Shown piece by piece: positions 1,860 to 60,191 of a stretch of DNA of 64,000 nt (position 1 is the stretch's first letter; the number at the start of each line of letters is the position of its first letter). This DNA is from Chloroflexota bacterium. GTDB taxonomy: Bacteria; Chloroflexota; Dehalococcoidia; Tepidiformales; Tepidiformaceae. A program made the translations under genes and the position numbers. Where the stretch lies: assembly GCA_026710655.1 (NCBI GenBank), contig JAPOQN010000005.1, positions 1 to 64,000 of the forward strand, written 5' to 3'. A model generated the notes under the pieces. The model saw only the letters and a program-made list of their open reading frames with translations, ran no database searches and was not told the DNA's origin.

Positions 1860-1865
1860 AGTCTA
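1860..1865 (-). promoter_or_regulatory. -10 box of recQ (leaderless)
   Basis: TAGACT on the minus strand, then 7 bases, then the GTG start. There is no clear -35 box and no Shine-Dalgarno, so the transcript probably begins at the start codon. Confidence 0.55.
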
Positions 1866-1908
1866 GAACATTTGAGCGCAGGGCGGGCAAGCGCGGGCGC
1901 CCGACGGG

Positions 1909-1914
1909 TAGGCT
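1909..1914 (+). promoter_or_regulatory. -10 box of gatD (leaderless)
   Basis: TAGGCT, then exactly 6 bases (AGGGAC), then ATG at 1921. It mirrors the recQ promoter across the short divergent gap. Confidence 0.55.
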
Positions 1915-1920
1915 AGGGAC

Positions 1921-2721
1921 ATGGTCGACGGGGACGGCGTACGGCTGCGGCTGGCGCACCTGTATGCGGATGTGATGAACGTGTACGGCGACCGCGGGAA
2001 CGCGATCGCGCTGCGGTACCGCTGCGAGGCGCGGGGCATCGCGCTCGACGTGGACGGCGTCGGCATCGGGGAGGCGTTCGACCCCGGGAACTACGACCTG
2101 CTCATCGTGGGCGGGGGCGAGGACCGGGAGCAGCGGCGCATCGCCGACGACCTGGTGGCGCGGGGTCCGGCGATCCGGTCGGCGATCGAGGATGGGCTGC
2201 CGGCGCTGGCTGTGTGCGGGGGGTTCCAGCTGTTCGGCGAGCGTTATATCGATGCAGATGGCGGGGTGCTGCCGGGCATCGGGGTCTTCCGCATGGAGAC
2301 AGTCCAACCGGAAGAGGGGGCGGAGCGCGCGATCGGCAATGTGCTGCTGGGCACGGGCTTCGGAGAGGTGGTGGGATTCGAGAACCACGGTGGGCGGACG
2401 TGGCTGCACGGCAGGGAGGAGCGGTTCGGCACGGTGATCGCAGGCCGCGGGAACAACGGGGAGGACGGGTCGGAGGGGGCGCGGGTGGGGAACGCGATCG
2501 GCACCTACCTGCACGGGAGTCTGCTCCCCAAGAACCCGGCGGTGGCGGACTTCCTGCTGGAGAAGGCGCTGAAGCAGCGCTACGGCGAGTCGGCCGCGCT
2601 GGCGCCGATCGACGACAGCCTGGAGGAATCGGCGCGACGGGCGGCGAGCGCGATCACGCGGCGGGGAGACGGGGAGGGGCTGGGAAGGCGCCTGCGGGGG
2701 CTGTTGCGGCGGTCGGGGTGA
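1921..2721 (+). CDS. gatD: Lipid II isoglutaminyl synthase glutaminase subunit GatD
   Basis: Class I (CobB/CobQ-type) glutamine amidotransferase subunit. In the MurT-GatD complex it frees ammonia from glutamine so that MurT can amidate D-glutamate in the lipid II stem peptide. Visible features are GGGEDREQ near 64-71, the nucleophile in [10 protein letters not shown] (Cys99) and the catalytic His198 in [12 protein letters not shown]. The 266-residue length fits GatD, with a basic C-terminal tail. The family partner murT normally lies beside gatD but is absent here: recQ is on one side and groEL on the other. MurJ, encoded at 16.5 kb, would flip the product. Another CobB/CobQ-like amidotransferase is possible but less likely. 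Confidence 0.85.
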
Positions 2722-2737
2722 GGGGCGGCGGGATTGA

Positions 2738-2764
2738 TTAGCACTCTTGCGGTAAGAGTGCTAA
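2738..2764 (+). promoter_or_regulatory. CIRCE operator (HrcA binding site)
   Basis: A perfect inverted repeat, TTAGCACTC, 9-base spacer TTGCGGTAA, GAGTGCTAA. This is the textbook CIRCE element bound by the heat-shock repressor HrcA. It ends 41 bases before the groEL start and overlaps the likely promoter. Confidence 0.97.
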
Positions 2765-2767
2765 CAT
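2738..2767 (+). promoter_or_regulatory. groEL promoter, overlapped by CIRCE
   Basis: A TTAGCA -35-like hexamer (2738-2743) lies 18 bases from TAACAT (2762-2767). The two CIRCE arms cover both boxes, so HrcA binding would block polymerase directly. The -10 is credible; the -35 is weak. Confidence 0.5.
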
Positions 2768-2805
2768 ACGCGCCATCGACTTTCGGGAGAGGTACAGAGA
2801 GGTAC

Positions 2806-4419
2806 ATGCCCAAACAACTTCTGTTCGATGAAGAAGCCCGCCACGCGATGAAGCGTGGCATCGACGCGCTCGCTGACGCCGTCAAGATCACGCTGGGGCC
2901 GAAGGGCCGCAACGTGGTGCTCGACAAGAAGTTCGGCGCGCCGACCATTACGAATGACGGTGTGACGATCGCCAAGGACATCGAGCTGGAGGAAGCGTTC
3001 GAGAACATCGGCGCCCAGCTCGCCAAGGAGATCGCCTCCAAGACGAATGACATCGCCGGCGACGGCACGACCACGGCGACCGTGGTGGGCCAGGCGATCG
3101 TGCAGGAAGGCCTCAAGAACGTGGCCGCCGGCGCGAACCCGATGTCGCTGAAGCGTGGCCTTGAGAAGGGCGCCGAGGCGGTCGTGGACCGCGTCGGCCG
3201 CAACTCGATCAAGGTGAACGCGCGCGAGCAGATGGCGCAGGTCGCGTCCATTTCGGCGAACAACGACCCCACCATCGGCGAGCTCATCGGCGAGACGATG
3301 GAGAAGGTCGGCAAGGACGGGGTGATCACGGTCGAGGAGTCGAAGGGCATCCAGACCGAGGTCGAGTACGTGGACGGCATGGCGTTCGACCGCGGCTTCA
3401 TCAGCCCCTACTTCGTGACGAACCCGGACCGCATGGAAGCGGAGATCGAGGATCCCCTGATCCTCATCACCGACAAGAAGCTGTCCTCGATCCAGGAGCT
3501 CCTGCCGCTGCTGGAGAAGATCGTCTCGCAGTCGAAGAACCTGCTCATCATCGCCGCTGATGTCGACGGTGAAGCGCTGGCGACGCTGGCGGTGAACAAG
3601 CTGCGCGGCACGATGAACGTGCTCGCGGTGAAGGCTCCGGGCTTCGGCGACCGCCAGAAGGACAACCTGGGCGACGTCGCGACGCTGACGGGCGCGCAGG
3701 TCATCTCCGAGGAGATCGGCCGGACACTCGACAGCGTGACACAGGCCGACCTGGGCAGTGCCCGCCGGGTGCTCTCAACCAAGGAAGACACCACCATCAT
3801 CGAGGGCCGTGGCAAGAAGAAGGACATCGACGCCCGTGTGGGCCAGGTCCGCGCCATCCTCGGCGAGGCGAAGAGCGACTGGGACCGCGAGAAGGCCCAG
3901 GAGCGGCTTGGCAAGCTGGCCGGCAGCGTCGCGGTTATCCGCGTCGGCGCGGCCACCGAGGTCGAGCTGAAGGAGAAGAAGCACCGCGTGGAGGACGCCC
4001 TGAGCGCGACCCGTGCGGCTGTGGAAGAAGGCATCGTGCCGGGCGGCGGTGTCGCCCTGCTGAACGCCATCTCGGCGCTCGACCGCGTGAAGCTGGACGG
4101 CGACGAGGACACGGGCGCCCGCATCCTGCGCCGCGCACTGGAGGAGCCCCTCCGCCGCATCGCCATCAACGCCGGCAAAGACGGCTCGGTGGTGGTCGAA
4201 GAGGTGAAGGAGCTGAAGAAGGGCCTCGGCTACGACGCCCAGCTGGACGAATTCGGCGACATGGTGGAAAAGGGCATCATCGATCCGGCGAAGGTAACCC
4301 GCGCCGCCATCGAGAACGCCGTCTCCATCGCCGCGATGGTCCTGACGACGAACTGCCTGGTCACGGAGAAATCGGATCCGACGCCCGCCGCGGCGGCTCC
4401 GCCCGCGCCGATGTACTAG
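2806..4419 (+). CDS. groEL: Chaperonin GroEL (60 kDa)
   Basis: ATP-driven cytosolic folding chamber subunit. The start at 2806 ([18 protein letters not shown]) is chosen because the open frame upstream runs through the CIRCE operator. Signatures include [17 protein letters not shown], the nucleotide-binding GDGTTTAT (85-92), [14 protein letters not shown] and [11 protein letters not shown]. The length of 537 residues is normal. The C-terminus ends in [12 protein letters not shown] and lacks the Gly-Gly-Met repeat tail of many GroELs. No groES is next to it, so the co-chaperonin must be elsewhere. CIRCE indicates HrcA heat-shock control, and a GC-rich hairpin follows the stop. Confidence 0.98.
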
Positions 4420-4468
4420 GCTCACCCTCCACCCGCCCGCCAACGCGGTGGGCGAACGAGGACCTGTG

Positions 4469-4501
4469 GCGAGGGGGCACGGCGAGAGCCGGCCCCCTCG
4501 C
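4469..4501 (+). terminator. Stem-loop after groEL
   Basis: GCGAGGGGGC (4469-4478) and GCCCCCTCGC (4492-4501) form a perfect 10-bp stem. Its 13-base loop can itself form a GGC-GAGA-GCC mini-hairpin. Only TT follows, so it is either a terminator without a strong U tract or an mRNA-stabilising hairpin. Confidence 0.6.
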
Positions 4502-4523
4502 TTCACATCCGGGGGTAGTGCCC

Positions 4524-4976
4524 ATGGCCCACTCGGAGAACGGCCTGCAGGTCGACCTGGAGGCGCTGCGGGAGCGGCTGGAGAACGCCGACCTGATCGT
4601 GATCGGGTTCCACGCCTTCCCCGAGCGGCTGCTGCTGGATGCGCGCAGCTCGCCCACGGAGGGGCCGCTGGTGGCGGTGGTGGCGCCGGTCACGAGCCTG
4701 CAGGAGCGCTACGCCTGGCTGGGGAAGCACCGGAGCGCGTTCGGTCTGCCGGACGACTTCACGTTTGCGATGTGGCCGCACTCCATCTCCCTGATACGCG
4801 AACACGAGGTGCTCGAACCGATGAGCGCACGCATGACGGCCGTCTCGAACGAGGCGGACCTGGCGATGTCGCGGGCGATCGCTCGGCTGGAAGTGCTTGA
4901 GCGCCGCACGATCCGGGAGGCGGTGCTGGGCGGTCCGGGCTGGGAATCGCTCTGGCCGGAAGAGGACGAGGACTAG
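4524..4976 (+). CDS. Conserved hypothetical protein, 150 aa
   Basis: I do not recognise this family. The ATG at 4524 is preceded by GGGGG at 8 bases spacing; a GTG two codons earlier is the alternative start. It looks like a small soluble alpha/beta protein. A hydrophobic strand (ADLIVIGFHAFPERLLL) is followed by a second (GPLVAVVAPV), an aromatic-rich middle (DDFTFAMWPHSISLI) and an amphipathic helix ending in acidic WPEEDED. There is no membrane segment or metal motif. It lies just past the groEL hairpin and converges on moaA. Confidence 0.7.
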   Translation: MAHSENGLQVDLEALRERLENADLIVIGFHAFPERLLLDARSSPTEGPLVAVVAPVTSLQERYAWLGKHRSAFGLPDDFTFAMWPHSISLIREHEVLEPMSARMTAVSNEADLAMSRAIARLEVLERRTIREAVLGGPGWESLWPEEDED

Positions 4977-4991
4977 CCCGGCGACCGGAAT

Positions 4992-5999
4992 CTAGCCGCC
5001 GATGTGGGACATCTCGACGCGCTTGAGCTCGGTGGTGGCATCGGTGCGGAGGTCGGAGTAACGGTCGTCGCGGACGCGCCAGACGCGAGCGATGGCGTCG
5101 GCCAGCTCCTCGTCGGTGAAGCCGCTCCGCAGGAGGGCGCGGAGGTCGAAACCGCTCGCCCCGAAGAGGCAGGTGAAGAGCTCGCCCTCCGGGGACAGGC
5201 GGGCGCGGGTGCAGTCGCCGCAGAAGGGCTGTGTGATCGAGGTAATGACGCCGATCTCCCCGCCCCCGTCGCGGTAGCGGTACCGCCGCGCGACTTCGCC
5301 GCGATAGTTCGGGTCGAGGGGCTCCAGGGGGAGGGCGTCGTCGATACGCTCGACGATCTCGGCAGCGGGCACGACGTGGTCGAGCACCCAGCCGTTGGTC
5401 GTGCCGACATCCATGTACTCGATGAAGCGCACGATGACGCCGGTGCCGTGAAAGTGGCGGGCGAGGTCGACGATGGTGTGGTCGTTGAGGCCTCGCTTGA
5501 CGACGGCGTTCACCTTGATCGGCCAGAGACCGGCGTCACGGGCGGCATCGATGCCCGCGAGGACCACGTCGACGCCAACTTCGACGTCGTTCATGGCGCG
5601 GAAGGTGGCGTCGTCGAGAGAGTCGAGGCTGACGGTGATGCGGGTCAGGCCCGCTTCGCGGAGGGGGCCGGCCTGGGCCGGAAGGAGCGCGCCGTTGGTC
5701 GTGAGGGTGAGGTCCTGGAGGCCCTCGAGGGCGGCGAGCTGCTCGATGAGGAGGGGCAGGTCGCGGCGGACGAGGGGTTCGCCGCCGGTGACCCGGATCT
5801 TCTCGACCCCCTGCGCGATGAAGATGCGCGAGAGCCGCACGATCTCCTCGTAGGTAAGCAGCTCCTCGCGGTCGAGGAACTGGAAGTCCGGGCCGAAGAC
5901 CTCCCGGGGCATGCAGTAGACGCAGCGGAAATTGCAGCGATCCGTCACGGACACGCGCAGGTCGCGCAGGGGGCGGTCGAAGGTATCGCGCACGGCCAT
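4992..5999 (-). CDS. moaA: GTP 3',8-cyclase MoaA (molybdenum cofactor synthesis)
   Basis: Radical SAM enzyme converting GTP to 3',8-cyclo-dihydro-GTP, the first step of molybdopterin synthesis. The N-terminal [4Fe-4S] site is CNFRCVYC (C22, C26, C29) and GGEP lies at 72-75. The second substrate-binding cluster is C260, C263 and C277 (CGDC, then FTC). The protein ends in the Gly-Gly tail typical of MoaA, needed for activity. At 335 residues it is full length. No other moa gene is near. A TAAGCT box 7 bases before the ATG and no Shine-Dalgarno suggest a leaderless message. Confidence 0.97.
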
Positions 6000-6006
6000 C
6001 AGGGGT

Positions 6007-6012
6007 AGCTTA
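6007..6012 (-). promoter_or_regulatory. -10 box of moaA (leaderless)
   Basis: TAAGCT on the minus strand with 7 bases to the ATG at 5999. It overlaps a CCGTTAA heptamer that recurs twice upstream of the neighbouring MerR gene. Confidence 0.45.
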
Positions 6013-6063
6013 ACGGTCCCATCCGTTTCGTTGTGCTGGAGGGAGCCGATCGAGCCTCCGGCG

Positions 6064-11459: not shown

Positions 11460-11696
11460 CTACCGGAGGGCGATGAGGAGGGTGGGGAGGATCAGCCCCA
11501 TGAGGAGGAGGAGGGCGATGCCGACGCCGATCGCGTTCCAGTCGCGGGGCGGGCGGCGCTCGCTGGCGTAGTACTCCTGCTCCCAGGTGCCGTCGAGGAG
11601 GTCACGGTCACGCTCGTCAGGGCCGAGGATGAGGCCGTCGTCCTCATCGTCGTAGTCGTCGTCCTCAAAGTCCTCGTAGCGGTCCGGTTCGACCAT
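11460..11696 (-). CDS. Small acidic membrane protein, 78 aa
   Basis: A very acidic N-terminal half (YEDFEDDDYDDEDDG within residues 7-21) is followed by a basic patch and one strong C-terminal transmembrane helix (IGVGIALLLLMGLILPTLLIAL). Likely a tail-anchored protein with its acidic domain in the cytoplasm. It is the first gene of the SDR-like and CaiB operon. TAGCAT lies exactly 6 bases before its ATG. Function unknown. Confidence 0.65.
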   Translation of the reverse strand: MVEPDRYEDFEDDDYDDEDDGLILGPDERDRDLLDGTWEQEYYASERRPPRDWNAIGVGIALLLLMGLILPTLLIALR

Positions 11697-11702: not shown

Positions 11703-11708
11703 ATGCTA
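11703..11708 (-). promoter_or_regulatory. -10 box of the CaiB operon (leaderless)
   Basis: TAGCAT on the minus strand, 6 bases (GGGCCC), then the ATG at 11696. No Shine-Dalgarno. Confidence 0.5.
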
Positions 11709-16433: not shown

Positions 16434-16439
16434 ATGGTA
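16434..16439 (-). promoter_or_regulatory. -10 box of proB (leaderless)
   Basis: TACCAT on the minus strand, 6 bases (GGAGCC), then ATG. The GGAG here lies only 2 bases before the start codon, too close to act as a Shine-Dalgarno. Confidence 0.55.
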
Positions 16440-16499: not shown

Positions 16500-16505
16500 T
16501 ACCAT
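16500..16505 (+). promoter_or_regulatory. -10 box of murJ (leaderless)
   Basis: TACCAT, then 7 bases, then the ATG at 16513. It supports 16513 rather than 16504 as the murJ start, because the ATG at 16504 overlaps the box. Confidence 0.5.
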
Positions 16506-20275: not shown

Positions 20276-20281
20276 ATGGTA
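20276..20281 (-). promoter_or_regulatory. -10 box of mtaB-scpB-DUF503 (leaderless)
   Basis: TACCAT on the minus strand, 6 bases (ACCGCC), then ATG at 20269. No Shine-Dalgarno. Confidence 0.55.
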
Positions 20282-25212: not shown

Positions 25213-25240
25213 TTGACCGGACGGACACGGGCTTCAGGAT
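25213..25240 (+). promoter_or_regulatory. Promoter of the second methyltransferase
   Basis: TTGACC (25213-25218), 16 bases, CAGGAT (25235-25240), then 6 bases to ATG at 25247. The -35 box is good; the transcript would be leaderless. Confidence 0.5.
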
Positions 25241-25246
25241 TCGGCG

Positions 25247-25984
25247 ATGCCTGACAACCAGGACTCCCCCTCCGACCTGTTTCCTCGCAGCGCTACCTAC
25301 GACGAGGAGTGGGTAACGGCGAACCGCATGGGGCCGAACGTGCTCTGGCTGGCGGAATTGCTGACCAAGCGGATGACGCTGGAGCCGGGCATGCGGGTCA
25401 TGGACCTCGGCTGTGGGAAGGGGTTGAGCTCGGTATTCCTTGCGCGCGAGTTCGGCGTGGAGGTTTGGGCGACCGACCTCTGGATCAAGCCGACGGATAA
25501 CTGGGCGCGCATCCGGGAAGCCGGGCTGGAGGGGCAGGTCCACCCCATCTACGCGGAGGCGCACCGGCTTCCGTACGCGGAGGGCTTCTTCGACGCGATC
25601 ATCAGCCTGGACGCGTACCAGTACTTCGGCACGGCCGACCTGTATCTCGAGTACCTCGCGCCGTTCCTGCGCCCGGGCGGGGAGATCGGCATCGTGTGCC
25701 CTGCCTTCCGCCGGGAGCTGGGACCAGACACAGTCCCGGACTACCTGGCGAAGCTGTACGCACCGGGGGGCTTCCATGCATTCCACACGGCGGAGTGGTG
25801 GCGGAACCACTGGCGCAAGACCGGCCTCTTGGAGGTAACGCTCGCGGACGAGCCTCCTGAGTCGGATGCGATCTGGGAAGAGTTCATTCCCCACACAGGA
25901 CCGGAGGAGCAGGTGCAACTCTCGGCCGATGCCGACGGCGAGCGCGTCCTGACGTTCGCACGGGTGGTGGCGCGCAGGAAGTAG
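25247..25984 (+). CDS. SAM-dependent methyltransferase, second of a tandem pair
   Basis: Paralogue of the preceding gene, 245 residues, with the same motif I (MRVMDLGCGKGLSSVFLAR) and DAIISLDAYQYFG. It starts MPDNQDSPSDLFPRSATYD: the NQDSPS insert resembles the MPDYQD start of the crotonase that follows, as if the duplication breakpoint lay at the shared ATGCCTGA. Differences cluster in the C-terminal third (LYAPGGFHAFHT against YYGVGAYSFHT), suggesting different acceptors. Substrate unknown. Confidence 0.88.
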   Translation: MPDNQDSPSDLFPRSATYDEEWVTANRMGPNVLWLAELLTKRMTLEPGMRVMDLGCGKGLSSVFLAREFGVEVWATDLWIKPTDNWARIREAGLEGQVHPIYAEAHRLPYAEGFFDAIISLDAYQYFGTADLYLEYLAPFLRPGGEIGIVCPAFRRELGPDTVPDYLAKLYAPGGFHAFHTAEWWRNHWRKTGLLEVTLADEPPESDAIWEEFIPHTGPEEQVQLSADADGERVLTFARVVARRK

Positions 25985-26034: not shown

Positions 26035-26040
26035 TAGGAT
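26035..26040 (+). promoter_or_regulatory. -10 box of the 26.0 kb crotonase (leaderless)
   Basis: TAGGAT, 6 bases (TCGGCC), then ATG at 26047. It is the homologous position to CAGGAT before the second methyltransferase. Confidence 0.5.
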
Positions 26041-26046
26041 TCGGCC

Positions 26047-26940
26047 ATGCCTGATTACCAAGACATCCTCACCGAAAAGCGGGACCGCCACGCGATCATC
26101 ACCCTCAACCGGCCGGAGAAGATGAACGCGCTGAGCCACAACCTTCGCGCCGAGGTCTTCGACGCGATGAAGCAGTTCGAGCTCGACGAGAGCGTGAAGG
26201 TGATCGTCCTGCGGGGCTCGGGCCGGGCCTTCAGCGCCGGGTACGACCTCTCGGGCACGCCGCCGGACGAGCACAGCTACGTCGATACGCGCAGCGGGCT
26301 TCCGGGCGTGGGTCCGATCCACCCTGGCCAGGGCCAGTGGCCCCAGCACCTGCTAAGCGGCTACTGGCAGATCTGGGACCTGACGAAGCCGGTGATCGCG
26401 CAGGTACACGGCTACTGCCTGGCGGGCGGCACGGAACTGGCGACGATGTGCGACCTGATGTTCATCGCCGAGGACGCGATCATCGGGTCCCCGCCGGTGC
26501 GAGCGATGACGAGCGTGGACATCATCTACCACCCCTGGCACATGCATCAGAAGAAGGTGCGGGAGCTCCTCTACACGGGCGACAGCCTGACTGGCCTGGA
26601 GGCGGTGGAGGCGGGCTGGGCGAATCGCGCCTTCCCGGTCGAGGAGCTGTGCGAGGCGACGGAGGCGTTCGCCGAGCGCATCGCCAACATCGACTCGCCC
26701 ATGCTGCAGATGACGAAGCGGCAGGTGAACCGCGTCTACGAGATCATGGGGATTCGCACCTCGATGGCGGTGGGAGCCGACATCCAGGCGCTGAGCTCCG
26801 TGCGCCCCGGGGGCGGGGAGTTCGGGCGCATCTCGCGCGAGAAGGGGCTGAAGGCCGCGCTCGACTGGCGCGACGGCCCGTTCGAGGACTACGGGAAGGC
26901 GCCTCCCGGCACGGCCCGTCCCAGCGCCGCGACCTGGTGA
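26047..26940 (+). CDS. Enoyl-CoA hydratase/isomerase family protein
   Basis: Crotonase-fold protein of 297 residues, with ITLNRPEKMNALS, GRAFSAGYDLSG and HGYCLAGGTELATMCD. It shares the long C-terminal segment EFGRISREKGLKAALDWRD with the 11.7 kb paralogue. Neither usual catalytic glutamate of hydratases is obvious, so another crotonase reaction is possible. Its stop TGA overlaps the GTG of the thioesterase gene, which would release CoA from a related product; this coupling argues for one acyl-CoA pathway. Confidence 0.88.
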   Translation: MPDYQDILTEKRDRHAIITLNRPEKMNALSHNLRAEVFDAMKQFELDESVKVIVLRGSGRAFSAGYDLSGTPPDEHSYVDTRSGLPGVGPIHPGQGQWPQHLLSGYWQIWDLTKPVIAQVHGYCLAGGTELATMCDLMFIAEDAIIGSPPVRAMTSVDIIYHPWHMHQKKVRELLYTGDSLTGLEAVEAGWANRAFPVEELCEATEAFAERIANIDSPMLQMTKRQVNRVYEIMGIRTSMAVGADIQALSSVRPGGGEFGRISREKGLKAALDWRDGPFEDYGKAPPGTARPSAATW

Positions 26941-28048: not shown

Positions 28049-28133
28049 GGAGCATCCATCGTACCGGACGGCGGGGGTGGCGGCTGCGGCGCGGGAGGGC
28101 CACGATCGGGGCTCAGTATCACGGGAGGACGCG

Positions 28134-30754: not shown

Positions 30755-30760
30755 AGTATA
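30755..30760 (-). promoter_or_regulatory. -10 box of the DinB-like gene
   Basis: TATACT on the minus strand, 8 bases before the GTG. Near-consensus -10 with an essentially absent leader. Confidence 0.5.
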
Positions 30761-32752: not shown

Positions 32753-32758
32753 TAGTGT
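32753..32758 (+). promoter_or_regulatory. -10 box of ispDF (leaderless)
   Basis: TAGTGT, 6 bases (GCGGCC), ATG at 32765. On the other strand TACCAT (32736-32741) is a candidate -10 for the radical SAM gene, with a leader of about 30 bases. Confidence 0.5.
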
Positions 32759-32764: not shown

Positions 32765-33436
32765 ATGCAGGTCGACGCCGTGGTGGTCGCAGCAGGGCGG
32801 TCGACGCGCTTCGGGGAGGGGGACAAGCTGCTCGCCGACCTGAACGGGCGGCCGCTGATCGCCTGGACGCTGGCAGCGCTGGCGGAGGCGGGGTCGATCG
32901 GGCGGGTTGCGATCGTGGGGCGGGAGGAGCTGCTGGGGGCGCTGCGGGCGATCGGGCGCGAAGTTCTTGGGGAGGCGCTGGCGGCGGTGGTGCCGGGGGG
33001 CGCGCGGCGACGGGACAGCGTGGAGGCGGGGCTGCGGGCGGTGGCGAGCGAGTACGTGGCGATCCATGACGGGGCGCGACCGCTAGTGACGCCCGCGCTC
33101 ATCGATGCCTGCGTAGCAGAGGCGGCGAAGGCCGACGGGGCGATCCTCGTGGGGCCCGTAACGGACACGATCAAGGAAGTGGAGGGGGATACGATCGTGG
33201 GGAGCCCTCAACGGGGGCGGCTGCGGGCGGCGCAGACGCCGCAGGTGGTACGTCGCGAGGCGTGGCTCGAAGCGGCGGCGCTCTCCGAGGGGGACGAGAC
33301 GGACGACGCGGCCATGCTCGCGCGGGCGGGGCTGGAGGTGCGAACGGTCGAAGGCGACCCGTCAAACCTCAAGGTGACACGGCCGATCGACCTGATGCTG
33401 GCGCAAGCGCTGCTGGCGGAGCGGGAGGGAAGCTGA
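32765..33436 (+). CDS. ispD: 2-C-methyl-D-erythritol 4-phosphate cytidylyltransferase IspD
   Basis: Third step of the MEP isoprenoid pathway, joining CTP and MEP. The 223-residue nucleotidyltransferase shows AAGRSTRFGEGDKLLADLNGRP (nucleotide loop, split), VPGGARRRDSVEAGL, IHDGARPLVTP and QTPQVVRREAW. The stop TGA overlaps the ispF ATG in TGATG, giving translational coupling. These two adjacent steps are commonly paired, sometimes fused, in bacteria. Confidence 0.95.
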   Translation: MQVDAVVVAAGRSTRFGEGDKLLADLNGRPLIAWTLAALAEAGSIGRVAIVGREELLGALRAIGREVLGEALAAVVPGGARRRDSVEAGLRAVASEYVAIHDGARPLVTPALIDACVAEAAKADGAILVGPVTDTIKEVEGDTIVGSPQRGRLRAAQTPQVVRREAWLEAAALSEGDETDDAAMLARAGLEVRTVEGDPSNLKVTRPIDLMLAQALLAEREGS

Positions 33437-33918
33437 TGCGGGTGGGAATCGGAGAGGACCTGCACCGGGTCGAGGAAGGGCGGACGTTGGTGTTGGGCGG
33501 GATCACGATCGAGGGGGCGGCGGGGCTGGCGGGGCACAGCGACGCGGATGTGCTGCTGCACGCGGTCACGGACGCGGTGCTGGGGGCGGCGGGGAAGGGT
33601 GACCTGGGGACGCATTTCCCCAGTTCGGACGACCGCTGGAAAGACGCCGACAGCCGCGTGTTCCTGGGGGAGGCACTGCGGATGGCGCGGGAGGATGGCT
33701 GGTCGCTCGCGAACGTCGATGCGACGGTGCGGGCGGAGCGGCCGCGTCTGGCTTCCCACCTGGGAGCCATCCGCGAGAGCATCGCGGAGATCGCGGGTGT
33801 CGAGCCGGCGCGGGTGAACGTGAAGGCGAAGAGCGGGGAAGGGGTGGACGCGGTGGGGCGCGGCGAGGCGATCGGGGCGACGGCGGCGGTGTTGCTGGAG
33901 GCAGCGCCGCGAGGCTAG
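33436..33918 (+). CDS. ispF: 2-C-methyl-D-erythritol 2,4-cyclodiphosphate synthase IspF
   Basis: Cyclises CDP-ME-2-phosphate in the MEP pathway; a zinc-containing homotrimer. The 160-residue protein has GIGEDLHRV (metal Asp8 and His10), HSDADVLLHAVTDA (catalytic and metal His), GDLGTHFPSSD, a core VNVKAKSGEGVDAVGRGE, and the family end. Start at 33436 by the overlap with ispD. Convergent with rpoC. Confidence 0.96.
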   Translation: MRVGIGEDLHRVEEGRTLVLGGITIEGAAGLAGHSDADVLLHAVTDAVLGAAGKGDLGTHFPSSDDRWKDADSRVFLGEALRMAREDGWSLANVDATVRAERPRLASHLGAIRESIAEIAGVEPARVNVKAKSGEGVDAVGRGEAIGATAAVLLEAAPRG

Positions 33919-47544: not shown

Positions 47545-47572
47545 AGTATGCGCTTGTTAACGGCAATGTCAA
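47545..47572 (-). promoter_or_regulatory. Promoter of the 119-aa gene
   Basis: Minus-strand TTGACA (47567-47572), 16 bases, CATACT (47545-47550), then only 7 bases to the ATG at 47537. The message is leaderless or nearly so. Confidence 0.65.
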
Positions 47573-47635: not shown

Positions 47636-48775
47636 CTAGATGTCGATGGCGACGCCGAGGGCAGCCCCGATGCCGTAGGTAACGCCGGCCGCCGCGAGTC
47701 CCAGGGCGAGCTGGCGTCCGCCTGAGTAGAGGGCGGAGCGGCCCGTCCAGAGCGTGACGGCGGCCCCGAGGACGAACAGACCAACGGCGCCCAGCCCAAG
47801 GCTGAGGCCGATGGCGAGCCCGCCATCGGCGAAGAACCAGGGGAAGGCGGGGAGAAGCGCTCCCACGGCGAAGAGCAGAAACGAGGTAACAGCAGCGACC
47901 GAAGCGCTGGCGGCGCTGTCTTCGGACATGCCGAGCTCCTCGCGCACGAGGGTATCGAGGGCGGTCTCGCTGTTCTGGAAGACGCGGTCGGCAGTGATGC
48001 GGGCGGCCTCTTCGGAGAGCCCCTTCGCCTGGTAGATGAGGACGAGCTCGGCACGCTCCTCCTCGGGGTTCATTTCCAACTCCTCGCGCTCGATCTCGAC
48101 CTGACGGTCGAAGGCCTCGCGGCTGCTGCGAACGCTGATCCACTCACCGAAGGCCATGCTGAAGGCGCCCGCAAGGAGCCCGGCGATGCCGGCCAGGGCA
48201 ACCACCTCGCGGCCGGGATCGGCGCCGGCGAAACCCATGACAAGGCTGAGGTTGGAGACGAGACCATCGTTGGCGCCGAGGACGGCGGCGCGGAGGGCGT
48301 TGCCGGAGGCGCTGCGGTGACGGCCCTCGAGGCGGGCGACGTCGACGCTCTCGCCGGGCTGGCGGCCAAGCTCCTGGAAGAGGCGCGCGTGCGAGCGCTC
48401 GGAGCCGGGGAGCCCCTCGGCAATGGCCTCGGGCTGGTCGTCGTACATGGTGACGGCGTTCAGCTCCATGCGCTCGACGATGGGAGTGACGAAGCCGGTC
48501 CCGAAGCGGCGGGCGAGCCAGCCGAGGACCCGCACCTGCATGCTGGGCCGGAAGCTGGGGATGTCCGCGCCGGCCTCGCGCAGCTTCTCCTGCCAGAGCT
48601 CGATGTGGCGCTTCTCGCTCTCGGCGAGGCGTTCGAACACCTTCTTCAGGTTGGGGTCATCCTCGGCATCCGCGAGGAGCAAGTAGAGACCCTGGCCGTC
48701 AACCTCCTCCTGGAGGTTGTTGCGGTAGCGGCGGACGTCGGCGGGGGTGAGGGGTGAAGAGGGGTCGGGTGTCAC
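47636..48775 (-). CDS. Erythrin-VIT1 type ferritin-like/iron transporter fusion
   Basis: The N-terminal 150 residues are a rubrerythrin-like helical domain (YLLLADAEDDPNLKKVFERLAESEKRHIELW, with Glu and ExxH ligands). The rest is a VIT1/CCC1 membrane domain (AAVLGANDGLVSNLSLVMGFAGA, MAFGEWISVRSSREA, then three hydrophobic helices). Such proteins export or store Fe or Mn to protect from metal stress. The GTG at 48775 overlaps the upstream GGCT stop in GTGA. Last gene of the tldD operon. Confidence 0.9.
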   Translation of the reverse strand: MTPDPSSPLTPADVRRYRNNLQEEVDGQGLYLLLADAEDDPNLKKVFERLAESEKRHIELWQEKLREAGADIPSFRPSMQVRVLGWLARRFGTGFVTPIVERMELNAVTMYDDQPEAIAEGLPGSERSHARLFQELGRQPGESVDVARLEGRHRSASGNALRAAVLGANDGLVSNLSLVMGFAGADPGREVVALAGIAGLLAGAFSMAFGEWISVRSSREAFDRQVEIEREELEMNPEEERAELVLIYQAKGLSEEAARITADRVFQNSETALDTLVREELGMSEDSAASASVAAVTSFLLFAVGALLPAFPWFFADGGLAIGLSLGLGAVGLFVLGAAVTLWTGRSALYSGGRQLALGLAAAGVTYGIGAALGVAIDI

Positions 48776-52072: not shown

Positions 52073-52078
52073 ATGGTA
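52073..52078 (-). promoter_or_regulatory. -10 box of the tldD operon (leaderless)
   Basis: TACCAT on the minus strand, 7 bases, ATG at 52065. Confidence 0.55.
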
Positions 52079-52136: not shown

Positions 52137-52142
52137 TACCCT
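52137..52142 (+). promoter_or_regulatory. -10 box of the exonuclease gene (leaderless)
   Basis: TACCCT, 7 bases (CCCCGGC), ATG at 52150. Confidence 0.5.
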
Positions 52143-53035: not shown

Positions 53036-53039
53036 GAAA

Positions 53040-56162: not shown

Positions 56163-56307
56163 GAACGGCCTCCTGCCTCGCAGTATCGAGCGGGCGGTGA
56201 CGTCCGGCAAGGCGTGCGCTGGGCGGCGCCGTCAACGTCCGGGTAGGCTCGTGCCGCCGGGGCAGTGACATGGAGCACCGGCCGGTCGTGGTTCACCGGG
56301 AGGGGCG

Positions 56308-56721
56308 ATGAGTGCGAGGCGAAGGCCAACAGTAGGGGTCGCGATCGTGTTGCGGGACGACGCGGGGCGGGTGCTGCTGGGGAAGCGGGCGGTGGGCTGG
56401 GGAGCCGGGGAGTGGTGCATCCCCTGCGGTTCGCTGGAGTGGGGGGAGGACGTGCGCGCGGCGGCGGAGCGGGAACTGCTCGAAGAGACCGGGATCAGGG
56501 CGCGGGCGGGGAAGGTGGTGGCGGTGCACTCCAACTTCCACGACCCGGAGCGGCTGACCGTCGGGATCTGGTTCGCGGGCGAGGATGCCCAGGGAGAGCC
56601 GGTTCCCGCCGACGGGGAACTGAGCGAGATTGGCTATTTCGACCCGGCGGAACCGCCACCGCTCGCCTTCCCCACGGACGCGCTCGTGCTGGCGCAGCTC
56701 GCGGAGGAAGGGGCCGGTTAG
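56308..56721 (+). CDS. Nudix hydrolase
   Basis: A 137-residue Nudix enzyme with the intact box GSLEWGEDVRAAAERELLEETGI (residues 41-63): the metal glutamates in REL.EE are present, unlike the degenerate copy at 20.3 kb. Hydrolyses a nucleoside diphosphate linked to another group. GGGAGGGG precedes the ATG, and TAGGCT (56245-56250) is a possible -10 with a leader of about 50 bases. Its stop overlaps the convergent sodX stop in TTAG. Confidence 0.9.
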   Translation: MSARRRPTVGVAIVLRDDAGRVLLGKRAVGWGAGEWCIPCGSLEWGEDVRAAAERELLEETGIRARAGKVVAVHSNFHDPERLTVGIWFAGEDAQGEPVPADGELSEIGYFDPAEPPPLAFPTDALVLAQLAEEGAG

Positions 56722-57113
56722 CGGACGGGGCCGAAGCGGGCCGGGGGCCAGTAGCGCCAGAACACGCGCCCGGTGATGTCGCCGGGATGGACCGGGCCGA
56801 AGGTGCGGCTGTCGGTGCTCTGCTGGGAATTGTCGCCAAGGAGCACGACGCCATCCGCTCCGTCCGGGCCAGCGACGCGCTTGGCGATCATGCGGGAGGG
56901 TTCGCGCGGGTCGCTGGCGAGCACGACCTGGCCGGGGGCGGGGTCACGCCGCGTGTAGGCGCGGGTGTCGACGACGACGTAGTCGCCGGGGTTGAGGGCG
57001 GGGGTCATGCTCTCGCCGGAGATGGCGTAACGGGACAGGCGCCAGCGGGCGAGCGCGACAAGCGCCGCGCCCGCGGCGGCAATGGCGAGGGCGACCCGGG
57101 CCGGCGTTCGAGG
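56718..57113 (-). CDS. sodX: Ni-SOD maturation protease SodX (S26 family), start codon unclear
   Basis: Signal-peptidase-like protease expected to remove the Ni-SOD propeptide. Reading back in frame from the ATG at 57008 gives RYAISGESMTPALNPGDYVVV, with the catalytic Ser just before that Met. A membrane anchor (ARVALAIAAAGAALVALARW) precedes it. The lysine is in SRMIAKRVAG, and GDNSQQSTDSRTFGPV is typical. The ATG at 57008 would therefore give a dead enzyme. Upstream to the sodN stop (57114-57116), in the same frame, there is no ATG, GTG or TTG, only ATT and CTG. The start shown is the first codon after the sodN stop. Confidence 0.75.
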   Translation of the reverse strand, partial: PRTPARVALAIAAAGAALVALARWRLSRYAISGESMTPALNPGDYVVVDTRAYTRRDPAPGQVVLASDPREPSRMIAKRVAGPDGADGVVLLGDNSQQSTDSRTFGPVHPGDITGRVFWRYWPPARFGPVR

Positions 57114-57560
57114 CTAGCCGGCGGTGTAGAAGGGAACGTCGTCGCGGCTCTTGGAGGCCCAGAAGATGTTGTGAATCTCGCCGATGGTATCGACGAGGGC
57201 CTGGGCAGCGTCGACGTTCACCTCGACCTTGTTCTGGGAGCAGAGCTTGGCCGCGTTCCAGAAGGTGTCGTGGAGGCCGGGGTTGGCCTCGAGGTGGGGA
57301 GGCTTGAAGTAGTCGGTCCAGAGGATGAGCAGCTCCTGCTTGGCCACCTGGGCCTGCTCTTCCTTGATGGCGATGAAGCGGCTGCGGGTGTTCTCGGTGG
57401 CGACGTCGTGACTCTCGGGGAGGTCGACGAGCTTCTTGGCCATGGAGAGGACAGCCTCTGCGGCGATGCGCGCGGATGCGGGGTCGTAGACGCCGCAGGG
57501 GCCGTCGCAGTGGGCGGAGGCGGTATGGGAGGGGCGGAGGATGCGATCGAGCAGGCTCAT
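57114..57560 (-). CDS. sodN: Nickel superoxide dismutase SodN
   Basis: Removes superoxide with an N-terminal nickel hook. The 148-residue precursor has a 16-residue propeptide (ending TASA), then HCDGPCGVYDP: mature His1, Cys2 and Cys6 are the nickel ligands, matching the family HCDLPCG motif. The four-helix domain follows. AAAAGGAG lies before the ATG, and TATACT about 35 bases upstream is a strong -10. The sodX frame follows directly after the single TAG stop. Confidence 0.96.
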   Translation of the reverse strand: MSLLDRILRPSHTASAHCDGPCGVYDPASARIAAEAVLSMAKKLVDLPESHDVATENTRSRFIAIKEEQAQVAKQELLILWTDYFKPPHLEANPGLHDTFWNAAKLCSQNKVEVNVDAAQALVDTIGEIHNIFWASKSRDDVPFYTAG

Positions 57561-57594
57561 GGGAGCTCCTTTTGGGCAGTTGGTTCGGCGAGCG

Positions 57595-57600
57595 AGTATA
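57595..57600 (-). promoter_or_regulatory. -10 box of sodN
   Basis: TATACT on the minus strand; the leader is about 28 bases with a good Shine-Dalgarno. No clear -35, so an activator or another sigma factor could be involved. Confidence 0.6.
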
Positions 57601-57622
57601 GCGGGGCGGCGGGTTATCCGCG

Positions 57623-58552
57623 TTATGACAGCCCCTCGCTGAGGGTGGAGAGGCGGGCGGCCTCGGCGTCGCTGATGGCGAAGTCGATGGCGGCAGCGTT
57701 CTCGCGCGCCTGGCGGGCGTGGCGCGCGCCGGGGATGGGGAGGACGTTGTCCTGGCGGGCGAGCCAGTTGATGGCGACCTGGGCGGACGAGCGCCCATGC
57801 GTCTGGCCGATTTCGTCGAGCGCCTGCAGAAGCGGCTCGACACGCTCGGGGTGGCGGAAGGCGCCGCTGAAGCGGCGGAAGCCCCTCGGCTGCTGGCCAC
57901 CGGCGCGGTACTTCCCCGTGAGCACGCCGCTGGCAAGGGGGAAGTAGGCGATGAGGGTCACGTCGAGCTCGCGGCAGGCGTCAAGGACGCCGTTCTGTTC
58001 CGGCTTACGGTTGAGCAGGCTGTAGTTGACCTGGTTGGAGACGAGGGGTACGCCGCGCCGGGCAAGGGCGGCATGGGCGGCGCGCATCTGGCCGGCGCTG
58101 TAGTTGCTGACCCCGGCGTGCCGGATACGGCCCTGCTCGACGGCCTCGGCAAGGCGGTTCATGAGGCTGGGGATGCGGAGGAGGGTGAAGGGGAAGTGGA
58201 TCTGGTAGAGGTCGACGGACTCGCGCTGGAGGCGATGGAGGCTGGCCTCAAGGGCGCGGTGAAGCGAGCCGCTGGTGAGCCGCCAGGGGAGTGGCGCGAA
58301 CTTGGTCGCGACGAAAGCGGGGCCTTCGTCGTCGGCGAGGGCGCGGCCGAGGGCGCGCTCGGATGCGCCGGAGTTGTATATCTCGGCGGTGTCGAAGAGG
58401 TTCACGCCGGCAGAGAGGGCGCCCTCGACGGCATCGGCGGGGTTGGTGGCGTCGGGGGTGGTCCCGGCCTCGTCCTTCCAGGTGTTGGTGCCCACGCCGA
58501 GGGGGCGGAGGAGGAGGTCGGTTGGGCCGAGGGGCATGTCGGGGAGGGACAT
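57623..58552 (-). CDS. Aldo/keto reductase, second of a tandem pair
   Basis: A (beta/alpha)8 NADPH-dependent oxidoreductase of 309 residues. FDTAEIY supplies the catalytic Asp and Tyr, FVATKFAP the Lys, and YQIHFPF the His. IPGARHARQARENA is the cofactor-binding C-terminal motif. It is about 70 percent identical to the gene just upstream. Substrate unknown. TACACT lies 6 bases before its ATG, so it has its own leaderless promoter. Confidence 0.92.
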   Translation of the reverse strand: MSLPDMPLGPTDLLLRPLGVGTNTWKDEAGTTPDATNPADAVEGALSAGVNLFDTAEIYNSGASERALGRALADDEGPAFVATKFAPLPWRLTSGSLHRALEASLHRLQRESVDLYQIHFPFTLLRIPSLMNRLAEAVEQGRIRHAGVSNYSAGQMRAAHAALARRGVPLVSNQVNYSLLNRKPEQNGVLDACRELDVTLIAYFPLASGVLTGKYRAGGQQPRGFRRFSGAFRHPERVEPLLQALDEIGQTHGRSSAQVAINWLARQDNVLPIPGARHARQARENAAAIDFAISDAEAARLSTLSEGLS

Positions 58553-58558
58553 GGGGTG

Positions 58559-58564
58559 AGTGTA
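58559..58564 (-). promoter_or_regulatory. -10 box of the downstream aldo/keto reductase (leaderless)
   Basis: TACACT on the minus strand, 6 bases, ATG at 58552, within the conserved block CCCTACACTC. Confidence 0.55.
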
Positions 58565-58587
58565 GGGGGCGGCCAGGATTTTCGCGC

Positions 58588-59514
58588 CTAGGACAGCCCG
58601 TCGCTGAGCTCGGTGATGCGGGCGGCCTCGGCGTCGCTCATGGCGAAGTCGATGGCGGCGGCGTTCTCGCTGGCCTGACGGGCATGTCGGGCTCCCGGTA
58701 TGGGGAGGACGTTGTCCTGGCGGGCGAGCCAGTTGATGGCGACCTGGGCCTGTGTTCGGCCGTGAGCCTGACCGATCTCGGCGAGGGCCTGGAGCAGGGG
58801 TTCCATGTCCCCAGGGGCGGGGAAGGGAGCGGTACGCCGCCGGATCCAGTGGCGGGGGGGCGTGGCGCCGCCACGGTACTTGCCGGTGAGCATCCCACTG
58901 GCAAGGGGAAGGTAGGCGATGAGGGTCACGTTCAACTCGCGGCAGGCGTCGAGCACGCCGTTTCGTTCGGGGTCGCGGTGGAGGATGTTGTAGTGCACCT
59001 GGTTCGACACGAGGGGCACTCCGCGCTCGGCGAGGGCGGCATGCGCGGTGCGCATCTGCGCAGCGCTGTAGTTGCAGACACCGACGTTGCGCACCTTTCC
59101 GGCCTCAACAGCGTCGGCAAGGCGGTTCATGAGCGAGCGGATGCGGAGGATTCCGAAGGGGAAGTGGATCTGGTAGAGGTCGACCGTTTCGAGTTGAAGG
59201 CGACGCAGACTGGCGTCCAGGGCACGCGGAAGGGCGGCGCTTGTAATGCGAAGGGGGGCGAACTTGGTAGCCAGGATGGCCGGCGCCTCGCTGGCGGCAG
59301 AAACGCGGCCAAGCTCGCGCTCGGAGGCTCCGCGGAGGTACCCCTCGGCGGTATCGAACACGCTGATTCCGCCAGCGGTGGCAGCTTCGAAGGTGGCCGC
59401 GGGGTCAGTGGGAGTTGTGCCCTCGTCCGGGGGCTCGCCCCAGCGCATGGTGCCCACGCCGAGGGGGCGGAGGAGGAGGTCGGTGGGGCCGAGGGGCATA
59501 TCGGGCAGGGACAT
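58588..59514 (-). CDS. Aldo/keto reductase, first of a tandem pair
   Basis: A 308-residue aldo/keto reductase with Asp/Tyr in FDTAEGY, Lys in ILATKFAP, His in YQIHFPFG and the C-terminal IPGARHARQASENA. Paralogue of the neighbouring gene; differences concentrate in the loops that shape the substrate pocket. The reaction is unknown. TACACT at 59521-59526, 6 bases upstream, indicates a leaderless message. Confidence 0.92.
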   Translation of the reverse strand: MSLPDMPLGPTDLLLRPLGVGTMRWGEPPDEGTTPTDPAATFEAATAGGISVFDTAEGYLRGASERELGRVSAASEAPAILATKFAPLRITSAALPRALDASLRRLQLETVDLYQIHFPFGILRIRSLMNRLADAVEAGKVRNVGVCNYSAAQMRTAHAALAERGVPLVSNQVHYNILHRDPERNGVLDACRELNVTLIAYLPLASGMLTGKYRGGATPPRHWIRRRTAPFPAPGDMEPLLQALAEIGQAHGRTQAQVAINWLARQDNVLPIPGARHARQASENAAAIDFAMSDAEAARITELSDGLS

Positions 59515-59520
59515 GGCGGG

Positions 59521-59526
59521 AGTGTA
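59521..59526 (-). promoter_or_regulatory. -10 box of the upstream aldo/keto reductase (leaderless)
   Basis: TACACT on the minus strand, 6 bases, ATG at 59514. Same CCCTACACTC block as at 58.56 and 60.19 kb. Confidence 0.55.
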
Positions 59527-59556
59527 GGGGACGGCGAGGTTCAGGCCACCGGGCTG

Positions 59557-60117
59557 CTACCGCTTCGTCCGCGTCTTCCAAAGGCCCGCGTTGCGGCTCG
59601 GAACGAGAGTCCGTGCCGAATTCCAGGCGAGCCTGCGTCCGGAAGTCCGCAGGGGGTGGGCCAGAAACTGCGTCAGCGGCGCCTCGTACAGGAGGATGCC
59701 GCCCCGGTCGAGAACCCGCTCAATCTCGCTGATAGCCAATTGGGGGGTTGGGACGTGGTAGGCAGTACCGAAGTCGACCACGACGTCGAATGACCGGTCC
59801 GGGAAGGGCATGTCCTGCACATCGCCGAGGACGAGCTCGGCGCCGTTGCCCGTGCGCCCTTCCTGTTCCGCAGCCTGGGAGAGGAAGTCCGGGTCGTGGT
59901 CGATGCCGGTAAGCGTCGAGGGGTTGCAGAGGCCGGACAGTGCGGGGAAGGCAACCCCACCACCACAACCGACCACGAGCATCCGCTTGTCCGATGGCAG
60001 GCGGAGGAGCTTCACGGCCAGGGGAACTTCCAGCGAGCCGTGCACGGAGTTTCGCCATTGCACGTCGGGGAAAGCGCCGAGGGCTCTCTGCCTGGCCGAC
60101 CACGTAAAGCGAGGCAA
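59557..60117 (-). CDS. Class I SAM-dependent methyltransferase
   Basis: A UbiE-like methyltransferase core: MLVVGCGGGVAFPAL (motif I), TLTGIDHDPDFL, LVLGDVQDMPFPDRSFDVVVDFG and RVLDRGGILLYEAP (motifs in parts). The C-terminus is short. The nominal start is a TTG without a Shine-Dalgarno. A properly promoted ATG lies at 60179 in another frame, separated by a single-base shift at a run of five G, so the native N-terminus may begin there. Acceptor unknown. Confidence 0.78.
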   Translation of the reverse strand: MPRFTWSARQRALGAFPDVQWRNSVHGSLEVPLAVKLLRLPSDKRMLVVGCGGGVAFPALSGLCNPSTLTGIDHDPDFLSQAAEQEGRTGNGAELVLGDVQDMPFPDRSFDVVVDFGTAYHVPTPQLAISEIERVLDRGGILLYEAPLTQFLAHPLRTSGRRLAWNSARTLVPSRNAGLWKTRTKR

Positions 60118-60122
60118 ACTTG

Positions 60123-60179
60123 CTACCCCCGCCAGTCCAGGCGGGGGTCGGCGGAGAGACGCGTGAGCGACAGGGGCAT
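60123..60179 (-). CDS. Short ORF, likely frameshifted N-terminus of the methyltransferase
   Basis: Eighteen codons, MPLSLTRLSADPRLDWRG, then TAG. A TACACT box lies exactly 6 bases before the ATG. One extra G in the GGGGG run (60126-60130) would fuse it in frame to VASLPRFTWSARQ of the methyltransferase. Either a base-call or real indel, a programmed -1 shift, or a leader peptide. Confidence 0.45.
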   Translation of the reverse strand: MPLSLTRLSADPRLDWRG

Positions 60180-60185
60180 GAAGAG

Positions 60186-60191
60186 AGTGTA
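60186..60191 (-). promoter_or_regulatory. -10 box of the methyltransferase unit (leaderless)
   Basis: TACACT on the minus strand, 6 bases, ATG at 60179. Third copy of the CCCTACACTC element in 1.6 kb. Confidence 0.5.

What the first reader, a model, noticed from the sequence alone, without database searches (positions are those of the whole stretch)
1860..60191. Leaderless-mRNA promoter architecture is common
At least 16 genes or operons have TANNNT 6-8 bases before the start codon and no usable Shine-Dalgarno: recQ 1860, gatD 1909, moaA 6007, CaiB operon 11703, proB 16434, murJ 16500, mtaB 20276, crotonase 26035, DinB-like 30755, ispDF 32753, tldD 52073, exonuclease 52137, two aldo/keto reductases 58559 and 59521, methyltransferase 60186, with near misses at 25235 and 47545. 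TACCAT and TAGNNT are favoured. The spacing puts the transcription start on the start codon. Leaderless messages are documented in Actinobacteria and Deinococcus; for the lineage suggested here I know of no systematic description. It also coexists with SD-led genes in the same window.
Basis: partly seen in the sequence, partly recalled or inferred. Interest (0 to 1): 0.75.

Follow-up and report, generated by a model that had tools for sequence, protein, structure and literature searches.

The report
Start-codon promoters for leaderless messages
In this bacterium of the phylum Chloroflexota about one gene in eight seems to be read from a promoter sitting right against its start codon, so that its message would begin with the gene itself and carry no ribosome-binding leader; the arrangement is known from other bacteria, and here it is measured in a lineage where it was barely described.

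Summary
At 14 of the 15 genes named, TANNNT lies 6-8 bases before a start codon that opens the gene, exactly where stated; the methyltransferase at 60186 fails. The window is Chloroflexota, same family as Tepidiforma flava. In 1.06 Mb of the genome (966 genes, starts called without any upstream motif) TANNNT peaks at spacers 6-9 (63, 31, 13, 11 genes; 0-2 per spacer at 0-5): 117 of 966 genes. The peak recurs in T. flava, a single-contig relative and another family. A weak TTG sits at the -35 distance; 18 of 20 orthologues in one relative keep the arrangement, 2 of 9 in T. flava. Best explanation: sigma-70-type promoters starting transcription on the start codon, giving leaderless mRNA beside SD-led genes. 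No 5' ends are mapped. Known in kind: surveyed in 2011 (Chloroflexi included, 4-6%) and proven in Deinococcus in 2025 with the same spacing and commonest hexamer, TACACT. New here: the lineage, a higher share, and a patchy spread over low-background (GC-rich) Chloroflexota families. The lack of SD is mostly geometry, not independent evidence.

The parts
1860..1865 (-). -10 hexamer TAGACT, spacer 7, recQ start GTG at 1852 (frame runs off the window)
   Evidence: kept in 2 of 3 relatives compared; RecQ domains
1909..1914 (+). -10 hexamer TAGGCT, spacer 6, gatD-like (GATase_3) start ATG 1921; back to back with recQ
   Evidence: 4 of 4 relatives, in two of them at a start 6 or 18 bases off the aligned place
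6007..6012 (-). -10 hexamer TAAGCT, spacer 7, moaA start ATG 5999
   Evidence: 2 of 3 relatives
11703..11708 (-). -10 hexamer TAGCAT, spacer 6, start ATG 11696 of a 78-aa frame at the head of a run of genes
   Evidence: no orthologue in the stretches held; no Pfam hit
16434..16439 (-). -10 hexamer TACCAT, spacer 6, proB-like gene start ATG 16427
   Evidence: TANNNT at spacer 6-7 in 22 of 30 family loci, own included; AA_kinase + PUA
16500..16505 (+). -10 hexamer TACCAT, spacer 7, murJ start ATG 16513; back to back with proB
   Evidence: 3 of 3 relatives
20276..20281 (-). -10 hexamer TACCAT, spacer 6, mtaB-like gene start ATG 20269
   Evidence: 2 of 2 relatives
26035..26040 (+). -10 hexamer TAGGAT, spacer 6, crotonase (enoyl-CoA hydratase family) start ATG 26047
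   Evidence: 3 of 3 relatives, TAAGAT at spacer 7 in G033
30755..30760 (-). -10 hexamer TATACT, spacer 8, DinB_2 gene start GTG 30746
   Evidence: 3 of 3 relatives
32753..32758 (+). -10 hexamer TAGTGT, spacer 6, ispD start ATG 32765 (followed by an ispF frame, 33436-33918)
   Evidence: 3 of 3 relatives, TACCGT in G033
   Evidence: 1 of 1 relative, at a start 27 bases off the aligned place
52073..52078 (-). -10 hexamer TACCAT, spacer 7, tldD start ATG 52065
   Evidence: 3 of 3 relatives
52137..52142 (+). -10 hexamer TACCCT, spacer 7, exonuclease (RNase_T) start ATG 52150; back to back with tldD
   Evidence: 2 of 3 relatives: TAGTCT spacer 8, TAGGCT spacer 7, absent in G037
58559..58564 (-). -10 hexamer TACACT, spacer 6, aldo/keto reductase start ATG 58552
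   Evidence: no orthologue passed in the stretches held
59521..59526 (-). -10 hexamer TACACT, spacer 6, second aldo/keto reductase start ATG 59514 (tandem copy)
   Evidence: no orthologue passed in the stretches held
60186..60191 (-). TACACT, spacer 6 before ATG 60179, but this frame stops after 18 codons; the methyltransferase frame is 59557-60117
25235..25240 (+). near miss CAGGAT, spacer 6, methyltransferase-frame ATG 25247; no TANNNT in 3 of 3 relatives
47545..47550 (-). near miss CATACT, spacer 7, ATG 47537 (119-aa frame); relatives not examined
28058..28063 (-). TACGAT, spacer 9, GTG 28048; a possible further case, not at spacers 6-8 in 2 of 2 relatives

Best explanation
These are ordinary sigma-70-type promoters whose -10 element (TANNNT; commonest TACACT, TAGGCT, TAGACT, TAGAAT) ends 6-7 bases before the start codon. 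With the usual 6-7 base discriminator (recalled), RNA polymerase begins transcription on, or within a base or two of, the first base of ATG/GTG, so the mRNA has no leader and no SD and is translated by recognition of its 5'-terminal start codon. About 12-14% of genes use it, above all divergent genes and genes after a short gap of 21-60 bp. Other genes use leadered promoters with SD. Shown by computation: motif, spacing peak, a weak -35-like element at the right distance, conservation within the genus, intact anti-SD. Inferred: the transcription start itself, absence of a leader, and translation without SD.
For: Spacing peak: 966 genes, spacers 6/7/8/9 = 63/31/13/11, spacers 0-5 = 6 in all. 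In the 806-gene run internal in-frame ATGs give 1 and 4 of 3918 at spacers 6 and 7, and 92 genes have spacer 6-8 against a mean of 7.9, maximum 17, in 200 shuffles. Whole genome, no gene calls: TANNNT-N6-ATG 220, reversed pattern 101, N3 control 51. Promoter identity: pooled over four genomes, leadered promoters (273) show TTG 23-24 bases upstream of the -10 (20 against 4.4 expected) and start-adjacent ones (225) at 22-25 (19 against 6.0), i.e. 16-19 bp spacing (the distances were picked after looking). Position: 38 of 140 genes with a 21-60 bp co-directional gap and 54 of 294 divergent genes, but 10 of 277 with a gap of 20 bp or less. Conservation: 18 of 20 such genes keep it in G033, against 3 of 63 genes with neither signal and 1 of 48 SD genes, while upstream identity at -40..-21 is 0.36. 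Starts are ATG (80) and GTG (37), no TTG, against 32 TTG of 849 in the others. 16S ends GGATCACCTCCTTTCT in G000, G033 and T. flava, so both modes can coexist. Same spacing and same commonest hexamer as proven in D. radiodurans (PMC12340547).
Against: No 5' end is mapped; spacers 7-9 could mean 1-3 base leaders. The -35 signal is weak. Absence of SD is mostly geometric. Aligned without gaps from the start codon, the hexamer columns are not more conserved than the same columns in other genes (0.57 against 0.55 and 0.53 over -12..-7; T1, A2, T6 0.55, 0.60, 0.70), because the spacer drifts; the conservation claim rests on the pattern being present. Across genera the status is unstable: 2 of 9 orthologues in T. 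flava keep it at the aligned start, and Tepidiforma proB has TCTACT instead. Start calls are my own and imperfect. The small Deinococcus plasmid control gave only 6 of 80 genes, so the method is not well calibrated on a proven case.
Confidence: 0.9

Rival explanations
1. The hexamer is a translational signal (an atypical ribosome-binding or S1-type site), not a promoter.
For: It occupies the SD position and has a fixed distance to the start codon.
Against: It is rare in genes that follow another gene by 20 bp or less (10 of 277), has a TTG element at the -35 distance, matches the -10 consensus, and in Deinococcus replacing the same motif by an RBS led to loss of reporter fluorescence and lower RNA.
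Confidence: 0.04
2. They are real promoters, but many transcripts have very short leaders (1-5 bases), so 'leaderless' is approximate. This overlaps with the best explanation and is a refinement of it rather than an exclusive rival.
For: Spacers 7-9 make up 55 of 118 hits; the spacer differs by a base between orthologues in 7 of 18 pairs.
Against: Spacer 6 is the mode, and C at -1 with a purine at +1 suits initiation on the start codon, although C at -1 is common in all genes here.
Confidence: 0.35
3. Chance: AT-rich hexamers in intergenic gaps of a GC-rich genome.
For: TANNNT is a loose pattern.
Against: Sharp positional peak, shuffles, N3 and reversed controls, and recurrence in orthologues.
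Confidence: 0.01

Closest known systems
TA-led (leaderless) genes, Zheng et al. 2011 (PMC3160421; passages read)
   Same: TANNNT about 12 bp upstream of the start (counted from its first T), read as -10 box of leaderless genes; coexists with SD-led genes; high-GC groups show the loose TANNNT form
   Different: There Chloroflexi had leaderless genes in 4 of 12 genomes at 4.0-5.7%, with a TATAAT-like signal; here 12-14% and the loose form, by another method, so the shares are not strictly comparable
'-10-motif adjacent to ORF' of Deinococcus-Thermus, Zhong et al. 2025 (PMC12340547; outline, passages and sections 7, 8, 14 read)
   Same: TANNNT mainly 6-7 bp before the start, TACACT the commonest form, works as the -10 element, a -35 only enhances, T1, A2, T6 nearly invariant there
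   Different: Nearly one third of D. radiodurans genes there, about one eighth here; experimentally proven there, only computed here. Their scan of complete bacterial reference genomes (tables not opened) may include Chloroflexota
Leaderless transcriptome of Mycobacterium tuberculosis, Cortes et al. 2013 (PMC3898074; search listing only)
   Same: TANNNT-type promoters and many leaderless mRNAs beside SD-led ones (recalled, beyond title and abstract start)
   Different: Other phylum; 5' ends mapped there

Membership tests
Leaderless-mRNA promoter architecture (TA-led genes / start-adjacent -10 motif) | -10-like TANNNT with a positional peak 6-7 bases before the start codon | tested here: met
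   63 and 31 of 966 genes at spacers 6 and 7 against 0-2 per spacer at 0-5; whole genome 220 against 51
Leaderless-mRNA promoter architecture (TA-led genes / start-adjacent -10 motif) | no Shine-Dalgarno before the start codon | tested here: inconclusive
   1 of 117 against 295 of 849, but 21 of 849 once the hexamer's place is masked: mostly geometry
Leaderless-mRNA promoter architecture (TA-led genes / start-adjacent -10 motif) | motif behaves as a promoter element (gene context, -35 at the right distance) | tested here: met
   the -35 signal is weak and its distance was picked after looking
Leaderless-mRNA promoter architecture (TA-led genes / start-adjacent -10 motif) | motif present before orthologous genes of related species | tested here: met
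   18 of 20 in G033, 33 of 43 window comparisons, 22 of 30 proB loci in the family; but 2 of 9 in T. flava, and no raised per-column identity without gaps
Leaderless-mRNA promoter architecture (TA-led genes / start-adjacent -10 motif) | mapped transcription start on the start codon | not testable with these tools
   needs 5'-end RNA data
Leaderless-mRNA promoter architecture (TA-led genes / start-adjacent -10 motif) | loss of transcription when the motif is changed | not testable with these tools
   bench test

The most novel reading that the evidence does not exclude
Leaderless initiation was gained or kept as a major gene-expression mode separately in several branches of Chloroflexota (inside Dehalococcoidia and outside it), while other families of similarly low background show little of it; and it lets a full promoter fit into a 21-60 bp gap, or two back-to-back promoters into under 100 bp: a compaction device that evolves family by family rather than a relic.
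Probability: 0.4. Interest if true: 0.55.

Novelty: new member of a known kind. Interest (0 to 1): 0.4.

Why it matters
Gene finders that lean on SD signals may misplace starts in such genomes (not tested here; recalled as a known problem). The phylum offers families with and without a strong signal, including a named strain with a complete genome (T. flava YIM 72310), so the question whether leaderless initiation is an ancestral relic or a repeatedly gained trait becomes testable. It also bears on how leaderless initiation works beside an intact anti-SD outside Actinobacteria and Deinococcus.

Tried and rejected
My gene caller, started from scratch on T. flava and G033 (GC 0.71-0.73), locked onto wrong frames (GTG-dominated calls; 3 of 279 and 0 of 201 genes at spacers 6-9); starting it from the G000 codon model changed this (third-position GC 0.93-0.96; 40 of 347 and 45 of 349). 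The first profiles are told here and not used.

Shine-Dalgarno exclusion looked strong (1 of 100 against 241 of 700) but proved mostly geometric and was dropped as independent evidence. An excess of back-to-back pairs was tested: both sides in 8 of 120 divergent pairs of G000 (5.9 expected), T. flava 1 of 61 (2.8), G033 7 of 49 (5.2), G083 6 of 57 (3.4): no clear excess. Orthologues in T. flava: 2 of 9 kept. In the G033 test 255 unique hits gave 131 usable pairs; dropped were 60 under 60% identity, 43 with the N-terminus not aligned, 19 without a start codon at the aligned place and 2 short. In the window comparison hits under 45% identity or aligned only from residue 13 on were left out, and a start within 30 bases of the aligned place was accepted.

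Controls: E. coli 150 kb, 101 called genes, spacers 6/7/8/9 = 0/4/0/0; D. radiodurans plasmids 150 kb, 80 genes, 3/1/0/2: too small, and rich in mobile genes, to calibrate. The reversed-pattern control is unreliable in AT-rich genomes, so N3 was used for the spread. By the reversed control 2 of the 36 family members (G036, G044, the two with the highest control counts) show no clear excess. The N6/N3 ratio is blind where the background is high, so low values there do not show absence.
Full report
Where the window lies. The ProB-like protein of the window is 71% identical to that of Tepidiforma flava YIM 72310; the next hits are Chloroflexota MAGs, among them Dehalococcoidia and SAR202. T. flava is G236 of the genome search: its proB lies at 1542081-1543187 in both, and its counts equal those of G001, the genome of the T. 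flava locus. G236 is labelled same family, other genus, as the window genome G000 (3.14 Mb, 71 contigs, 93% complete). Window GC is 0.695.

Fourteen of 15 named genes have TANNNT at the stated base with spacer 6 (gatD, the 78-aa frame at 11696, proB, mtaB, crotonase, ispD, both AKRs), 7 (recQ, moaA, murJ, tldD, exonuclease) or 8 (DinB_2). The methyltransferase at 60186 does not hold. Pfam supports the names RecQ, GATase_3 (GatD-like), MoaA, MurJ, UPF0004 with radical SAM (MtaB-like), DinB_2, IspD, TldD, RNase_T, amino-acid kinase with PUA (ProB-like), enoyl-CoA hydratase, two aldo/keto reductases and YgbB (IspF). 'CaiB' was not confirmed in the two frames scanned. A further case is the VIT-family gene at 48775.

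Genome-wide test. I wrote a codon-pair gene caller that places starts without looking upstream. On 860 kb it called 806 genes; on 1.06 Mb, 966 genes. TANNNT by distance between hexamer and start: spacers 0-5 give 1, 2, 1, 1, 0, 1; spacers 6-9 give 63, 31, 13, 11; then 4, 7, 2, 3, 1, 3. That is 117 of 966 genes. Allowing any start within 90 bases of the called one, 137 of 966 genes have spacer 6-8, against 14 (0-2), 10 (3-5), 21 (10-12) and 16 (13-15): roughly 12-14%. Internal in-frame ATGs have 1 and 4 of 3918 at spacers 6 and 7. Without gene calls, TANNNT-N6-ATG occurs 220 times in the whole genome, reversed 101, N3 51.

Promoter anatomy. The hexamer is TA, little preference at position 3, A or G at 4, C or A at 5, then T (100 genes); commonest TACACT 15, TAGGCT 9, TAGACT 8, TAGAAT 8 of 117. 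Pooled over four genomes, leadered promoters (TANNNT 17-39 bases upstream, 273) show TTG at 23-24 bases above the first T (12 and 8, expected 2.2 each), and start-adjacent ones (225) at 22-25 (8, 3, 4, 4, expected 1.5 each). Poisson P is 4e-8 and 2e-5, for distances picked after looking. Among G000's 242 SD genes TANNNT is commonest 22-39 bases upstream (66 hits in three 6-base bins, 12 in 16-21, 10 in 40-45), as for leadered promoters; in the other three genomes the numbers are too small to show it. Start-adjacent cases: divergent genes 54 of 294, co-directional gaps of 21-60 bp 38 of 140, 20 bp or less 10 of 277, 61-150 bp 7 of 146, above 150 bp 6 of 103. Three window pairs stand back to back: recQ/gatD, proB/murJ, tldD/exonuclease; genome-wide such pairs are not clearly in excess.

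Conservation. Between G000 and G033 (same genus, one contig), 18 of 20 orthologues with the motif keep it, against 3 of 63 with neither signal and 1 of 48 with SD. The listed pairs differ in the inner bases and, in 7 of 18, in the spacer; upstream identity is 0.36 at -40..-21. Aligned without gaps the hexamer columns are not more conserved than in other genes (0.57 against 0.55 and 0.53), so the evidence is the presence of the pattern. For 14 window genes (near miss and spacer-9 case included), 33 of 43 orthologue comparisons have it; the ten failures are the near miss at 25235 (3), the spacer-9 case (2), proB (2), recQ, moaA and the exonuclease (1 each). For proB, 22 of 30 family loci (own included) have TANNNT at spacer 6-7; Tepidiforma loci have TCTACT. 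Against T. flava overall 2 of 9 keep it, 5 have neither signal and 2 have SD, so the status turns over between genera, or starts differ.

Other genomes. T. flava 40 of 347 genes at spacers 6-9 (12, 17, 8, 3), G033 45 of 349, G083 of another family 38 of 333 (42 of 336); G033 on 640 kb 31, 26, 9, 8 of 566. Counting N6 against N3 in 245 class genomes, 64 have ratio 2 or more and z 4 or more: 19 of 19 in the window's family f1, 17 of 18 in f21, 15 of 17 in f2, 8 of 8 in f17 and 5 elsewhere. Outside the class, 31 of 133 genomes in 10 families pass (f86 6 of 6, f98 6 of 6, f116 4 of 4 and others), while f88 (0 of 11, ratios 1.33-1.73), f123 (0 of 2, 1.27-1.40) and f104 (0 of 2, 1.48-1.62) do not at a background of 26-32 N3 hits per Mb. 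Families of high background (AT-rich) cannot be judged by this measure. Family numbers are the tool's own; I do not know their names or how they branch.

Translation side. The 16S 3' end reads GGATCACCTCCTTTCT in G000, G033 and T. flava. Of the 849 genes without the motif 295 have an SD match of 5 or more and 554 do not; weak SDs, operon-internal genes and wrong starts may explain part of these (inference).

Literature. Searches: leaderless with Chloroflexi (16 papers, all listed), Dehalococcoid, Chloroflexota, GeneMarkS-2 and promoter, two or more of Tepidiforma, leaderless, Shine-Dalgarno, transcription start site (15 of 496 listed), Dehalococcoid with transcription start sites and promoter, TANNNT with leaderless (20 of 35 listed). 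In these listings I saw no paper on leaderless genes of Tepidiforma or Dehalococcoidia; the library holds only open-licence papers. Zheng 2011 (passages) already counts Chloroflexi. A 2017 survey (PMC5397173, passages) has two Chloroflexi species with a negative mean on the component it reads as leaderless/S1 signal. Zhong 2025 (sections 7, 8, 14 and passages) proves the arrangement in Deinococcus and scanned complete bacterial genomes. StartLink+ (PMC9581028, passages) gives 21.6% of bacterial species as predicted to use leaderless transcription. PMC10783764 (passages) lists Dehalococcoidia with the AAGGAGG-type SD.

Verdict. A sound observation and a sound reading of it; ordinary in kind, with a new lineage, a quantified share and a patchy spread over families. 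The transcription start itself remains inferred.

Noticed in passing
59557-60191, - strand: The TACACT-N6-ATG at 60179 opens a frame that ends after 18 codons, while a clear methyltransferase frame (59557-60117) lies in another frame; either the gene is broken or the true start is elsewhere.
   Followed up: partly
25235-25264 and 26035-26064, + strand: From the hexamer to the sixth codon the methyltransferase frame at 25247 and the crotonase gene at 26047 read almost alike, though the wider upstream 60 bases are only 43% identical: as if a start-adjacent promoter with its first codons had been copied onto another gene, one copy now CAGGAT instead of TAGGAT.
   Followed up: partly
57623-59526, - strand: Two aldo/keto reductase genes in tandem, 93% identical over the first 40 coding bases, with the same TACACT hexamer and spacer: a duplication, so not independent evidence.
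   Followed up: yes
   Followed up: yes
G000 sample, 966 genes: C is preferred at -1 and -2 of start codons in all genes (0.53 and 0.46 without the motif, 0.66 and 0.52 with it), not only in the leaderless ones; reason unknown.
   Followed up: no
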